From Carex sylvatica (taxonomy: Eukaryota; Streptophyta; Magnoliopsida; Poales; Cyperaceae): a DNA stretch of 64,000 bases. Location of the stretch: the NCBI GenBank assembly GCA_964058845.1, contig CAXKVR010000040.1:243310-307309 (forward strand), given 5' to 3'. Below, one piece after another: positions 45,481-54,562 of the stretch (within the stretch, counting starts at the first letter, position 1; the number at the start of each line of letters is the position of its first letter). Position numbers and translations under genes: made by a program. The notes under the pieces are model-generated. The model ran no database searches. It had not been told where the DNA came from and saw only the letters and a list, made by a program, of their open reading frames with translations.

Positions 45481-45658
45481 TTATTTCATTTTAGATTAAT
45501 TTATTTTTGTAGAGTACATTTAGTTTATGCTATATTTATTGAATATTAAGTAATTAGATTTGTTATTTGTTAGGTTTGTTAAATTTATTAAGTAATTAGA
45601 TTTGTTAGATTTATTGAATATGTTAGATTTATTTAGTTTATGTTAGATTTGAATATGT

Positions 45659-46260
45659 CAAGTAATTATATTTGTTTTGAATATGTTAGATTTTATTTTT
45701 CAAATTGTTAGATTTATTTTTAATATGTTTTTTTAAAATAGATTAGTTTTATAGATTTGAATATATGAAGTGATTATATTTGTTTTGAATATGTTAGATT
45801 TATTTTTCAAAATTCGGATTTATTTTTAATAGGTTTTTTAAAATATGTTAGTTTTATAGATTTGAATATGTGAAGTGATTATAATTGTTTTGAATATGTT
45901 AGATTTATTTTTCAAAATTCGGATTTATTTTTAATAGGTTTTTTAAAATAGGTTAGTTTTATAGATTTGAATATGTGAAGTGATTATATTTGTTTTGAAT
46001 AGGTTAGATTTATTTTTCAAAATTCAGATTTATTTTTAATAGGTTTTTTAAAATAAGTTAGTTTTATAGATTTGAATATGTGAAGTGATTATATTTGTTT
46101 TGAATAGGTTAGATTTATTTTTCAAAATTCGGATTTATTTTTAATAGGTTTTTAAAAATATGTTAGTTTTATAGATTTGAATATGTGAAGTGATTATATT
46201 TGTTTTGAATAGGTTAGATTTATTTTTCAAAATTCGGATTTATTTTTAATAGGTTTTTTA
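45659..46260 (+). repeat. 105-bp tandem repeat, ~5.5 copies
   Basis: The motif gtgattatatttgttttgaa recurs at about 45770, 45875, 45979, 46084 and 46189. Each unit also contains tttttcaaaattcggattta and ggttagttttatagatttga. It lies within the presumed leader intron of the transposase. Confidence 0.85.
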
Positions 46261-46725
46261 ATTTCTGTTTTTTAATTTCTGTTTTTTAAATTCAGTTTTT
46301 TAATTTCTGATTTTTAAATTCTGATTTTTAAATTCTGTTTTTTAATTTCTGTTTTTTAAATTCTGTTTTTTAAATTCTGTTTTTTAATTTCTGTTTTTTA
46401 ATTTCTGTTTTTTAAATGCTGTTTTTTAATTTCTGTTTTTTAAATTCTGGTTTTTAATTTCTGTTTTTTAATTTCTGTTTTTTAATTTCTGTTTTTTAAT
46501 TTCTGTTTTTTAATTTCTGTTTTTTAAATTCTGTTTTTTAATTTCTGATTTTTAATTTCTGTTTTTTAAATTCTGTTTTTTAAATTCTGTTTTTAATTTC
46601 TGTTTTTTAAATTCTTTTTTTAAATTTCTGTTTTTTAAATTCTGTTTTTTAAATTCTGTTTTTTAATTTCTGTTTTTTAAATTCTATTTTTTAAATTCTG
46701 TTTTTTAAATTCTGTTTTTTATTTT
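46261..46725 (+). repeat. 13-14-bp minisatellite (tttctgttttttaaa)
   Basis: More than thirty imperfect units of ttctgttttttaa(a/t) run head to tail with no interruption, directly after the 105-bp array. Confidence 0.9.
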
Positions 46726-46830: not shown

Positions 46831-49370
46831 ATGTCATCTCATCGTGATTCCGTGAAAGATGACATCGCGAGACTGTCGGCCGATATTTTTGGCCCGCCAA
46901 TACCAAATTATCCACAAAATTATCCACAAAATTCCTCCCAAATTGCACTACCTAATTATCCACAAAATTATCCACCAAATTATCAAAGAAGGGACCAAAT
47001 GCTAGATTTGAATTATCAACAACCCCCACAAATGAGTGCACCGCCACCGTATTATATTTCAAATGATCCAAATGTATATATTCCACAAGAAACACTTCAA
47101 CCGACACCACAGTATACATATGGAGGCATTGGCTCTTCTTCTGTAGCATCAAGTCAATTCATTGACACTGCTCCTGTAGGAGGTACACCTTCGATAGGTG
47201 AACCTAAAATTCAAGAAGAAGTTGTCTCTCCTTCGACAAGTGACCCGCAAGAACCAGCAGAAAAGAAGACTAAAAGACCTCCTCCCGAATACAATCAACC
47301 GTGGGCGAAATTTTATAATATTACCAGAGGAAAGGGCAACATTATGAATTTTCTACAATGTAAGGTAAAAAATTGCCGAATTTTTTTTGAGTATAAACAA
47401 ACTAGTGGTATGAGTAGTTTTAAGAGACATGTCGCAATGCACGAAAAAAAGAGTGAGGTTCCAACTGAAAATCCTGAACCGAGACAAATCCAAACCCTTA
47501 TAAACGGGATGGTACTAGAACAAATCCAAAATTTGATGAATAAAAAATGCTTAGTGAATTGGCCCGGTACATTATCCATAAAGAACAACCAATAAGTATG
47601 GGTGGTTGCACGAGTTTTACCCGGTTATGCATTCGGGGGTTAGGTCAACCAATGTACAAGAGGATCCATCATAGAAAGATAGTTAGTGAAATAAAAAATC
47701 AGTTTACCTCGACCAAAAATGACCTTAAAGCTCAATTTGTATACCAAAACAATAAGGTGTCAATTACCTCCGATATATGGACTGCTGGTAAATATGGCCT
47801 TCGGTACTCTTGTATTACCGGCAATTGGATCGATGATCATTGGGTATTACAAAAAAGAATATTAAGTTTTCGAGTTTTGGATTCTCCCAAACTACAAATG
47901 TAATTTTCAAATCCATTATTGAGGTTTTAGAAGAGTATAACCTTAAGAGGAATTTGGGTAACAAGGTTTTTTCTAAATCTTTCGATAATGCTAGCAACAA
48001 CATTGCTTCCATTGAGATTTTTAAACGGTCACTAAACCCGATCATGAACGGTGAAATGTTTCACCAAAAGTGTGCTTGCCACGTTCTTAACCTCGTCGTG
48101 AAGGCGGGTCTAAAAACAGAAGCCGTAAAACTATTGATAATTAAATTTAAGAATGCCCTCAACCACATTGTTTCAAACCAAGAAAGAAAACAACAATTTG
48201 CTGCATTATGCGTCACCTATAGATTGAGCAAGTTGAAGGTACCTTGGGATATAGATACCCGTTGGAACTCAACATATAGGTTGTTGAACCGATGCCTTCC
48301 TTACAAAGCTGTTATAGGGGAGTTTTTGAGAAGCTCCAACCCCGAGGCATTGCAATTCGAACTCATTGACGAAGAATGGGATAAACTGCAAAGGCTTAGC
48401 AAATTTCTAGGGATCTTTTTTACTGCAACCGTTCAACTATCATGCTCGTACTCACCGACGTCGTTTGAGTTGCTGAGACATCTCTATGACATCTCCAAGG
48501 TGTATTGCGAATTGGAACAAGCTGAAATCTATGATGCATCTCTCACGCCAATTGTAGATGCCATGAAACAAAAATTCCTAAAATATTAGGAAGATGTACC
48601 TCTCCTAGCCATTATCGCAAACTGCCTCCACCGGGCATACAAGAAGTTTTACACGATCAAAGTAGTTGAGAGGTACAAACAGAATTTACATTTAGACTCA
48701 ACCGGGGTGGAGGCTTACGTGAATTCAAAGTTCGATGAGATGTTTAACATATACCACTCAAGAATGAGTGACAACCGAAACCCAGCTTCGTCCCGTGCCG
48801 CCCCTAGGTATGAATATAAATATACATGTGTTTTCAATCTTTATTATTTATAATATCTACATTATTTGTCCACTAATTTTTTTAATTGTTTAATAGTTCC
48901 ACTTCTAGGAGCACTAGCAGTGGTGGATTATTAGCAGATTTTCAGTTGAAGAGCCAACCGCACACATCCACAAACGAGTTATTGGGCTATATATCGATGA
49001 TCAACGAAAGTGAACAAGGACTTGACGTGATGGCATGGTGGATGAGGCATCAAAGTTCCTTGCCAACGGTGGCGATGATGGCCCGCGATGTATTTGCCGT
49101 CCCCGTATCAACCGTCCCTTCTGAAAGTTATTTCAGTTCGGCGAACAAGATCCTCTCCGATAAACGAAGTAAGTTGGGTGCACATGTTTTTGAGAGACTT
49201 GTGTGCTTGAAGGATTAGATTGCTGCTGAAGAGCGGACGCAACATGTGCCTCAACAACCATCATCATCTGAAGCCGACACTGAAGAAAGCGGTACCGAGG
49301 CGCTGAGGTTAATTCAAATTCTAACGGTGCCGAAGAGAGCGAACAATGGTATATGAATCCAAACTACTAA
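46831..49370 (+). pseudogene. hAT transposase pseudogene (RICESLEEPER-like)
   Basis: The start ATG at 46831 opens a Pro/Gln/Asn-rich N-terminus with repeated NYPQNYP units. A BED-type zinc finger follows (PWAKFYN, LQCKVKNC, KRHVAMHEK; about residues 155-210). A 1-nt deletion in an A-run near 47541 shifts to the next frame, which carries ITSDIWTAGKYGLRYSCITG with a catalytic-type Asp. A second 1-nt loss near 47886 shifts to a frame with FDNASNN, NPIMNGEMFHQKCACHVLN and DTRWNSTY. TAG at 48587-48589 replaces an expected Trp. The frame then reads on to a GT-AG intron (48808-48896), followed by the hAT dimerisation domain (VPVSTVPSESYFSSANKILS). Another TAG (49216-49218) and a frameshift near 49300 precede the original stop at 49368-49370. 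It is not functional as it stands. Confidence 0.88.
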
Positions 49371-51121: not shown

Positions 51122-54100
51122 TCATTGCAGCAATCCACTCTTCTTCCCCCAACCAATAGCCAGAATGTATAAGATGACACAACCTCCAATTGTACCAAAA
51201 GTAGTGCCCCAAAATTTCATATCAGACTTTTGAGCTTCTTCTGGAGTGGTAGGAGTGTTGTAGAGGGAGATGCCAATGTTCATGCCAAAGAGACCTACAA
51301 CGACTACACCTGTAGTAATGACCACGGTTGCAGTAGATAGCATTACACCCATTTGTAGCAACTGGTTTTGCTTGTCATCTAGCATTATGTTGATATAGTC
51401 CTCTGTGTCATCCACGTACTCCCTCAACTATAATAATAAAATTCCATTTACTAGATTAATAGTGGAGTTAGTTTCAATCTTTGCTCCTATAAAACCTGAC
51501 AATCTGCAAACCAATGCAGTCCTACAGAAATAAGCATTGCTAAAAGGTGAACCTTAAACACATTTCCTCTTTTTTTGTTCCCCCCAGAAAATGATCAAGC
51601 TAAAACCCTTGTTTCTCATCCAGAGAAAACCATGTTCTTGTTAACATATTATCTCATCCAGACTTACTAATTGCTTCATGTAGCAATCCACAGCCCTCAT
51701 ACAGACATCTAATTGCAATTGCATATGAATTGAGGGAAACAGATGGCATGAAGAAATTCCAGTAATGGAATGAAAAATAATATAATTCTTTTCCAAAACT
51801 CTAGCAAAAAGAGGAAGCACATACATGAGATAATTTGTTAAGAGTTCCATCAATCTGCACAAAATAAGCTTCTAAGAGCATCTCCAATTCTTCAATGTTA
51901 GGCTTCATGGCAGTAATGCTCCCATTGCTGTTACCTGGATCTGATTGTATGTCTTCACCCCTAAAATATACATAACAGATTTTTATAAGCATTCTGTAAT
52001 GTATTAGCCTAAGATTTATTTATTTTTAAAACAGACCTAATATCTTAGCATGCTTCTCATTTTGTTAAAGAAAAATAACAGTGATATTCATTATCACCTG
52101 TAACCATTTCATTGCAGAAGCAATTATAAGCTTCTGAATTAATGAATTGATTTCTAATTTTCTACTTACAAAGCAATTTATTTGAGCATATTAGAATATT
52201 GGAGTAAGCTGGGCAATTTATGCATCTATTGACTATGGTTCAATCAGCTAGATGTCATATATTGAAGCTATACAAAAATATTGAGTTCTATCAAGCTTGT
52301 CAGGCATTACATGTGAAGACAAAGATTGAGGCATTTTGCAAAGACAGCAAGAGAATGCAAATTGAAATGTTTTACCCAAGATAGAGATGGCCTAACCTGT
52401 TCCCTTCAGTGACGTCATCATCATCATCATCATTATCGACGTCATGATGATCCTTGCCGTCATGATTATGATCGTTCTCATGAATACGGGACAGAGATGA
52501 CTCAAAAATACGTTGATTCATGAGTTTCTCTGTGAGATACATCTCTGCCATATCCATGTCATCATCCAACAGGTGCTCCAGTTCATCCCTCACCTTTCCA
52601 CCCCAATAAATCAAAATCAAAATCAAAAGAACTCACATGCAACTTTATTCAAGGGATGAAAAAAAGTATATCCTGCATTGTGCCAGTCATCATTATTTTA
52701 AGGGTAGGTACCTGAAGTAATCCTATACATAAATTTTTGTTTAATGTTAGTTTCTATATGTCCAATGTCCTAATTACCATTCCCTTTAATTACAATCAGT
52801 CAATCCGATCCTTGTACACTTGCATCGCATTGACCCAGATAACCATTAATATGGCAAAAAAAAAAAAATCTTTCCTTACCAGAAAGTGCTACAAATAGTA
52901 ATTAAAAAAAATAAAATTTACCTTCTGGACACGACCAGAGATAGCCACCAAGCGACTCTTGATTTGTCTGACGCGCTCTAGGTTAAGTGTGCTGATTTTT
53001 GAAGTCAACTCATCTAAAGCTGGATATGCCTCTTTTTCCAGAGTCAAAGTCTAACAAATAAGAGAAAAATTCAAATTGTTCTTGCCTGTACCAAACAAAT
53101 TGGCGCACTTTAGACTTTTATTTAGTCATAAATAACTGATATCAGCCTTGACTAATACCATTCAAAAACTCTTACAGATGGTTTAGAGGATTGAAATGAA
53201 CTATGCGCTAATTTAACCCTCAAGCTTAAGCAGTTCAATATTTAACTCGTTTCAGTTTCAACAAGTCGCTCAATTTTGGAAGGTATGCACCAAGAAGCCA
53301 AGAAAGACCAAAATGAAACACTGGAGTCAACTGGCCTAAGCAGGGCTCAGCCTGGTTCAAACTTTTTTAAATTAAAGTTTGTTGTACACTAAAACTTGAA
53401 AGTTTGGAAAGCACCTCAGCTTCTAGACACCTACAAGCAGATTCCAGGCACACCTCCAGAGCTCTAAATTCAAAAGGAAGAACTTTCTTCATGCTTTGAA
53501 CCTTGAGTAATGCCAGAGGTGGTGGTGCTGGTAGACTACTGTTCTCTCTAGCTGGAATGCTATTATTTTGTTCGGACGCCTCAAGTGCATCTCTCTGTCC
53601 TGCACCAGGTACAGCAATCCCGGGCGACGAAGATGTTTCCTTTGTCAGAGCTTCTCCATCTAAGTCACACTAGAAAAGAAAGGGCAAAAAGCAAGTTATA
53701 TAATTGGTGCTTAATGAGACTATAAACAGGGGCTAAGTCACACTAGAAAAGAAAGGGCAAAAGCAAGTTATATAATTGGTGCTTAATGAGACTATAAACA
53801 GGGGCTAAGTCACACTAGAAAAGAAAGGGAAAAAGCAAGTTATATAATTGGTGCTTAATGAGACTATAAACAGGGGCAACAACTACGTGAGGCTTACCAA
53901 TATTCATGAAACCGAAAGGTTCCCCTAATAATGTCGTAACCCCATGCCAGTCTAACAATAACAACAGAAGGTAATCTACAATATCAGGAAAAAAATGACC
54001 AATAACCAGCAATTATATTTCTGAATTGAGACAGAGGTAATCCTATAGGAAAAAAATACACCGGTTGAACCTTGGTGAATTTCATTCATGTGTCCATTGT

Positions 54101-54562
54101 GTTTTAGACAAATCAGAAAAGGCAACTAGACTCTATTAGTAATCCCATTTCCTGAAGACAAATGCTAGTCGTATGTTTAACAATTACCGTTTGATTTGTC
54201 CCACCAGAATCCGAAACCCTGGCTTGTAATTCACGAACCAAAGGTGCCACCACTGGATCTTTAGAATTTGGGATTAACACCTCCTGTGCAGTTATTACAG
54301 CCCTGAATCTCTCCAAATTCACCACAATCGCTCTTTCTCTTCCCAGTATAGACGAAGGATACGACAGGTTAGGGTCGAGCACGCGCAGGTCACGCGCGGG
54401 GAGACCCGTACGGGCCATGACTTGGTGCTTTCCCACATCTTCCAGGCATGCGCCGCCAGATGACGAGACGACCAGCCACTCACGAGTAGCCGCCGCTGCC
54501 GCCTTGCGCCGGGTCCCTCCAGGCGGAGGAACGGCCTGTGCACGTGCGTGGGGGGTCTCCAT
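51122..54562 (-). CDS. MRS2: MRS2/CorA-type magnesium transporter
   Basis: Six exons join in frame: 54188-54562, 53415-53669, 52922-53050, 52397-52593, 51825-51960 and 51122-51427. All have GT-AG introns, giving 465 codons, a usual size for plant MRS2/MGT proteins. These are Mg2+ channels, probably pentameric, in the plasma membrane or internal membranes. The N-terminal domain includes ARDLRVLDPNLSYPSSILGRERAIVVNLE. LPFEFRALEVCLE and a long helical region follow (residues 185-260). The C-terminus has two membrane helices (about 392-414 and 437-458) with the selectivity motif GMN at 412-414. YVDDTEDYINIMLDDKQN precedes the first helix, as in the family. A His/Asp-rich stretch lies at 291-313. 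The paralogue number cannot be fixed from the sequence alone. The first ATG is used, since upstream sequence has in-frame stops. The tandemly repeated splice acceptor of exon 2 is listed separately. Confidence 0.95.
53661..53877 (-). repeat. Triplicated 72-73-bp repeat spanning the exon 2 splice acceptor
   Basis: Three tandem copies lie at 53661-53733, 53734-53805 and 53806-53877, almost identical apart from one or two bases near gggcaaaaag. Each contains on the minus strand cttttctag|tgtgactta, the intron 1 acceptor plus the first nine bases of exon 2. Only the copy nearest the exon (acceptor before 53669) gives an open frame. Use of the acceptors before 53742 or 53814 would add 73 or 145 nt and meet in-frame stops. 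Confidence 0.92.

What the first reader, a model, noticed from the sequence alone, without database searches (positions are those of the whole stretch)
53661..53877. Splice acceptor of Mg transporter exon 2 is present three times in tandem
Three 72-73-bp repeats each hold the intron 1 acceptor and the first nine bases of exon 2. The copies are nearly identical, so the upstream two are strong candidate 3' splice sites. Using either would insert 73 or 145 nt and lead to in-frame stops (read by hand in both cases). This would produce transcripts prone to decay and could tune transporter output.
Basis: partly seen in the sequence, partly recalled or inferred. Interest (0 to 1): 0.75.

Follow-up and report, generated by a model that had tools for sequence, protein, structure and literature searches.

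The report
Triplicated splice acceptor in sedge gene
In a sedge magnesium-transporter gene a 72-base piece spanning the end of intron 1 and the start of exon 2 stands three times in a row, which adds two good-looking decoy splice sites that could waste some transcripts; this is most likely an ordinary DNA accident and not a regulatory switch.

Summary
Three units (72, 72 and 73 bp) lie head to tail at 53876-53660 on the minus strand. Each holds an intron-1 3' end and the first bases of exon 2. This is far beyond chance: TRF score 420, against at most 76 in 40 simulated windows. The gene is an MRS2-F-like Mg transporter, six coding exons, 465 aa; the closest protein is from the sedge Carex rostrata, 96% identical. 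The productive acceptor is the distal one, 53669, as judged from 8 aligned relatives. Either upstream acceptor adds 73 or 145 nt and gives a stop 250 or 328 nt before the next exon junction, so decay is expected. The three acceptors have the best pyrimidine tracts of intron 1, but only copy 3 is followed by exon-like purine-rich sequence. I expect mostly distal splicing with some unproductive leakage, from a recent and probably neutral duplication. Tuning of output has no evidence here: no RNA, other haplotypes or relatives' DNA could be examined. A close precedent is a potato RdRp gene with a tandem duplication across an intron-exon boundary.

The parts
53805..53876 (-). repeat unit 1 (72 bp), with acceptor 1 (first exon base 53814)
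53733..53804 (-). repeat unit 2 (72 bp), with acceptor 2 (first exon base 53742)
53660..53732 (-). repeat unit 3 (73 bp), with the productive acceptor (first exon base 53669)
   Evidence: protein alignment
54188..54562 (-). coding exon 1 of the MRS2-F-like gene (375 nt)
53670..54187 (-). intron 1 (518 nt with the distal acceptor)
53415..53669 (-). coding exon 2 (255 nt)
52922..53050 (-). coding exon 3
52397..52593 (-). coding exon 4
51825..51960 (-). coding exon 5
51122..51427 (-). coding exon 6, to the stop codon
53743..53745 (-). premature TAG if acceptor 1 is used (it is the TAG of acceptor 2)
   Evidence: position follows
53665..53667 (-). premature TGA if acceptor 2 is used (inside the first bases of exon 2)
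   Evidence: position follows

Best explanation
A short tandem duplication crossing the intron 1/exon 2 boundary, expanded to three copies, arose recently in this sedge lineage (inferred from near-identity). It left the original acceptor, with its exon-like downstream context, in the last copy and placed two decoy acceptors, each with the same candidate branch region, pyrimidine tract and AG, 73 and 145 nt upstream (shown). Most productive splicing goes to the distal copy (inferred from protein conservation and context). A minority of splicing to the decoys yields transcripts with premature stops that are expected to decay (stops shown, use and decay inferred). The array is most likely neutral or mildly deleterious, not selected.
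For: Near-identical units. Far above chance. One place found in the held genome, so no sign of a dispersed element. Of 3659 hits 120 were listed and 8 aligned: the four sedge and rush proteins read NQx-[CS][DE][LI]DGE across the join without any inserted residue, the other four have 3-4 more residues nearby but nothing like a 24-residue insert, and the G of the motif is the same in 9 of 9 rows. Copy 3 alone of the three has exon-like downstream sequence. Stops lie 250 and 328 nt before the exon 2/3 junction, with four further exons downstream. Short tandem arrays occur elsewhere in this genome: by one filter (period 40-150, at least 1.9 copies, at least 90% match) 4 in a 120-kb sample and 1 in a paralog locus.
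Against: No RNA was examined. The decoys' tracts are as good as or better than the productive one (0.95 and 0.90 against 0.90) and they lie nearer the donor, so their use could be substantial. The A+T step at copy 1 (0.07) is larger than at the real acceptor of exon 3 (0.05). Neutrality is the default here, not something tested. The context comparison rests on 7 acceptors taken as real.
Confidence: 0.62

Rival explanations
1. The upstream acceptors are used heavily and in a regulated way, so that unproductive splicing coupled to nonsense-mediated decay sets the output of the transporter.
For: Both decoys have complete-looking acceptors and give decay-type stops; by reading, an insert of 72 nt would meet a stop too.
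Against: No RNA or Mg-response data; intron-like downstream context of the decoys; a recent array leaves little time for selection. None of the 10 proteins that I read, of 120 listed and 428 found, carries the decoy reading frame; this is weak evidence, since such products are rarely deposited.
Confidence: 0.13
2. Assembly error, or a private haplotype whose copy number differs between individuals.
For: Tandem arrays are error-prone; the unit differences sit in a homopolymer-rich stretch; the held assembly is in 950 contigs.
Against: The units are not identical, and a 217-bp array is short for modern reads (inference). No reads could be examined.
Confidence: 0.15
3. Early stage of intron gain by tandem duplication: the exonic piece of an upstream copy gives a donor and the next copy gives an acceptor, as in potato RdRp.
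For: The same kind of duplication across the intron 1/exon 2 boundary as in PMC4974935.
Against: The only GT in the exonic piece (T|GTGACT) matches 4 of 8 consensus positions; the introns would be 71, 72 or 144 nt; the single combinations add 1 nt and the double one 2 nt, and they reach a stop after 126 or 128 residues.
Confidence: 0.04

Closest known systems
Potato RdRp gene PGSC0003DMG402000361, intron gain by tandem duplication (PMC4974935; abstract and Results section read)
   Same: Plant gene; tandem duplication crosses the boundary of intron 1 and exon 2; the copy inherits putative branch site, pyrimidine tract and 3' splice site. That gene also has an 83-bp tandem duplication inside its first intron that did not change the gene structure.
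   Different: Two copies there, three here; there a GTAAG donor gave a new intron shown by RNA-seq reads; here no good donor lies in the array and no RNA was seen.
Short tandem duplications from break repair (PMC8355091, passages read; Schiml et al. 2016 PNAS seen only as a reference there)
   Same: Head-to-tail form of a short DNA stretch; here the unit edges share a single G
   Different: The mechanism was not tested here; the third copy needs a further step such as slippage or unequal exchange (inference).
MRS2/CorA family Mg transporters
   Same: Protein encoded by the gene (Pfam MRS2-like PF22099)
   Different: Nothing unusual was seen in the protein; the oddity is at the intron 1 end.

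Membership tests
MRS2-like Mg transporter | MRS2-like domain and a GMN motif (importance of GMN recalled) | tested here: met
   PF22099 at 119.3 bits, cut-off 27; the CorA model stays below its cut-off, 22.6 of 27. GMN at residues 412-414 in 9 of 9 aligned rows.
Short tandem duplication across an intron-exon boundary | Adjacent near-identical units containing intron end and exon start | tested here: met
Intron gain by tandem duplication (potato RdRp type) | Usable donor within the duplicated part | tested here: not met
   Best GT inside the array matches 4 of 8 consensus positions, the real donor 6 of 8; products frameshifted to a stop
Intron gain by tandem duplication (potato RdRp type) | New intron spliced out in RNA | not testable with these tools
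   no RNA data
Alternative 3' splice sites coupled to nonsense-mediated decay | Alternative acceptor creates a stop more than about 50 nt before an exon junction (rule recalled) | tested here: met
   250 and 328 nt
Alternative 3' splice sites coupled to nonsense-mediated decay | The alternative junction is used in RNA and the transcript decays | not testable with these tools
   no RNA data

The most novel reading that the evidence does not exclude
A copy-number-variable ladder of splice acceptors: each added 72-bp unit adds one decoy acceptor and lowers the productive share of splicing, so that unit number, and perhaps splicing factors or Mg status, sets transporter dosage among plants.
Probability: 0.06. 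Interest if true: 0.6.

Novelty: new member of a known kind. Interest (0 to 1): 0.3.

Why it matters
It is a natural test of acceptor choice: three nearly identical 3' splice sites in a row that differ mainly in the sequence downstream. RNA from this plant would show directly how far nearness to the donor or exon context decides acceptor choice in a monocot. It also shows how small tandem duplications at intron ends can load a gene with decoy sites. If neutral, it is a minor curiosity.

Tried and rejected
Dispersed repeat or mobile element: no support, since the 301-bp query matched one place in the held genome. Paralogs sharing the array: two MRS2 paralog loci (C34, C519) were read. C34 has an intron at the corresponding place, without such an array, though its acceptor could not be fixed exactly; C519 has no intron there, its first exon running on into the part that is exon 2 here. 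TRF finds other arrays in both loci, none with this unit. Decoy isoform in protein collections: one search found 428 proteins and listed 120; I read 10 of these and aligned 5. P0121, listed at 100% coverage, is exon 1 run into intron 1 past the same donor position, not the decoy frame. Mini-introns inside the array: not supported. Papers: 10 searches ran, two of them with no paper listed. In the titles and abstract beginnings that these listings showed I saw no report of a triplicated plant acceptor; most papers of subscription journals are not held, so this is no proof of absence. The divergence time (0.7-3.5 My for one difference in 72 bp) uses recalled rates and is only an order of magnitude.

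Full report
What is there. On the minus strand of the window, 53876-53660, three units of 72, 72 and 73 bp lie head to tail. They differ only where the pyrimidine tract reads TTTTTCCC, TTTTGCCC or TTTTTGCCC. Each contains a candidate branch region (my reading), a pyrimidine tract, CTAG and then TGTGACTTAG, the first ten bases of exon 2. The upstream flank and the unit end share a single G, so the edge is ambiguous by one base. TRF gives score 420; 40 order-3 Markov versions of the window gave at most 76, and no array with a period of 40 or more. A 301-bp query over the stretch matches once in the 64 Mb held of this genome.

The gene. Six coding exons join to a 465-aa open frame that matches the MRS2-like family; 6 distinct PDB sequences, all Mrs2 proteins, match it distantly (best E 5.8e-18). 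The best protein is from Carex rostrata, 96% identical, followed by Carex littledalei (88%) and Rhynchospora pubera (85%); the rush Juncus effusus comes fifth. The host is thus a sedge, probably Carex (inference). I aligned 8 of the 120 listed relatives. The four sedge and rush rows cross the exon 1-2 join without inserted residues; the other four have 3-4 more residues nearby. The fifth residue of exon 2, glycine 130, is the same in 9 of 9 rows. This marks 53669 as the ancestral, productive acceptor. All three units carry the leucine codon that is third in exon 2. C. rostrata has leucine there too, while C. littledalei, Rhynchospora and Juncus have isoleucine. This fits a duplication after that change, though later homogenisation of the units cannot be excluded.

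What the extra acceptors would do. Using 53742 adds 73 nt and reaches TGA after 150 residues; using 53814 adds 145 nt and reaches TAG after 148. The stops lie 250 and 328 nt before the exon 2/3 junction, so by the recalled 50-nt rule both transcripts should decay. By reading, a 72-nt insert would end in the in-frame TAG of the unit itself, so the result does not hang on the single extra base.

Which acceptor wins. Among the AGs of intron 1 that end at least 40 nt from its start, the three unit acceptors rank first by pyrimidine content (0.95, 0.90, 0.90), and they exceed the 6 other acceptors of this gene and its paralogs that I scored (0.50-0.75). Downstream, however, copy 3 has purine 0.63 and 7 purine-rich triplets in 60 nt, like the 6 others (0.57-0.63; 6-10), while copies 1 and 2 have 0.37 and 1. 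The A+T step is less clear: 0.07, 0.03 and 0.17 for copies 1-3 against 0.05-0.27 for the others, so the real acceptor of exon 3 lies below copy 1. Purine richness is also what coding sequence tends to show, so it is a cue and not a measurement of strength. I infer mostly distal use with some leakage. The decoys' nearness to the donor speaks the other way. RNA alone can settle this.

How it arose and how unusual it is. The form fits the small tandem duplications ascribed to break repair (PMC8355091, passages read). By one filter (period 40-150, at least 1.9 copies, at least 90% match, overlapping rows dropped) the window has 3 arrays in 64 kb, the sample of 12 stretches (fixed positions, not drawn at random) has 4 in 120 kb, and two paralog loci have 1 in 14.8 kb. 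At the sample's density the 64 Mb held would have about two thousand arrays; if acceptors stand every few kilobases (assumed, not measured), tens to a hundred or so would fall on one by chance, selection ignored. With at least 95% match and 2.5 copies the sample has none and the window two (rows), so this array is at the clean end.

Comparison. The closest case found is the potato RdRp gene, where a tandem duplication across the intron 1/exon 2 boundary made a new intron (PMC4974935; abstract, Results). Here the array holds no good donor, and mini-introns would shift the frame. The finding is thus a new instance of a known kind of event, with three copies and decoy acceptors rather than a new intron.

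Verdict. Observation confirmed; consequence for the reading frame confirmed; use of the decoys in RNA unknown; regulatory function unsupported.

Noticed in passing
window 53975-53898 (minus strand): A possible 78-nt cryptic exon inside intron 1: acceptor GATATTGTAG (pyrimidine 0.75) and donor TG|GTAAGC, equal to the real donor by consensus matches (6 of 8); it would put TAG in frame after 7 codons.
   Followed up: partly
window 46831-49218 (plus strand): Reading frames downstream of the transporter gene; 1 of 4 scanned (48886-49218) matches the hAT transposase dimerisation domain.
   Followed up: partly
window 45644-46725: A 105-bp array of 5.9 copies followed by a 14-bp array of 33.9 copies, just before the hAT-like frames.
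   Followed up: no
L017 6444-6568: A 57-bp tandem duplication (2.2 copies, 94% match) inside a paralogous MRS2 gene, between two of its matched exon pieces.
   Followed up: no
L018 3468-4040: A 297-bp tandem duplication (2.0 copies, 84% match) within the second MRS2 paralog locus.
   Followed up: no
L018, first exon of the C519 paralog: This MRS2 paralog lacks the intron that is intron 1 in the window gene; its first exon runs on into the corresponding part of exon 2 (by reading).
   Followed up: no
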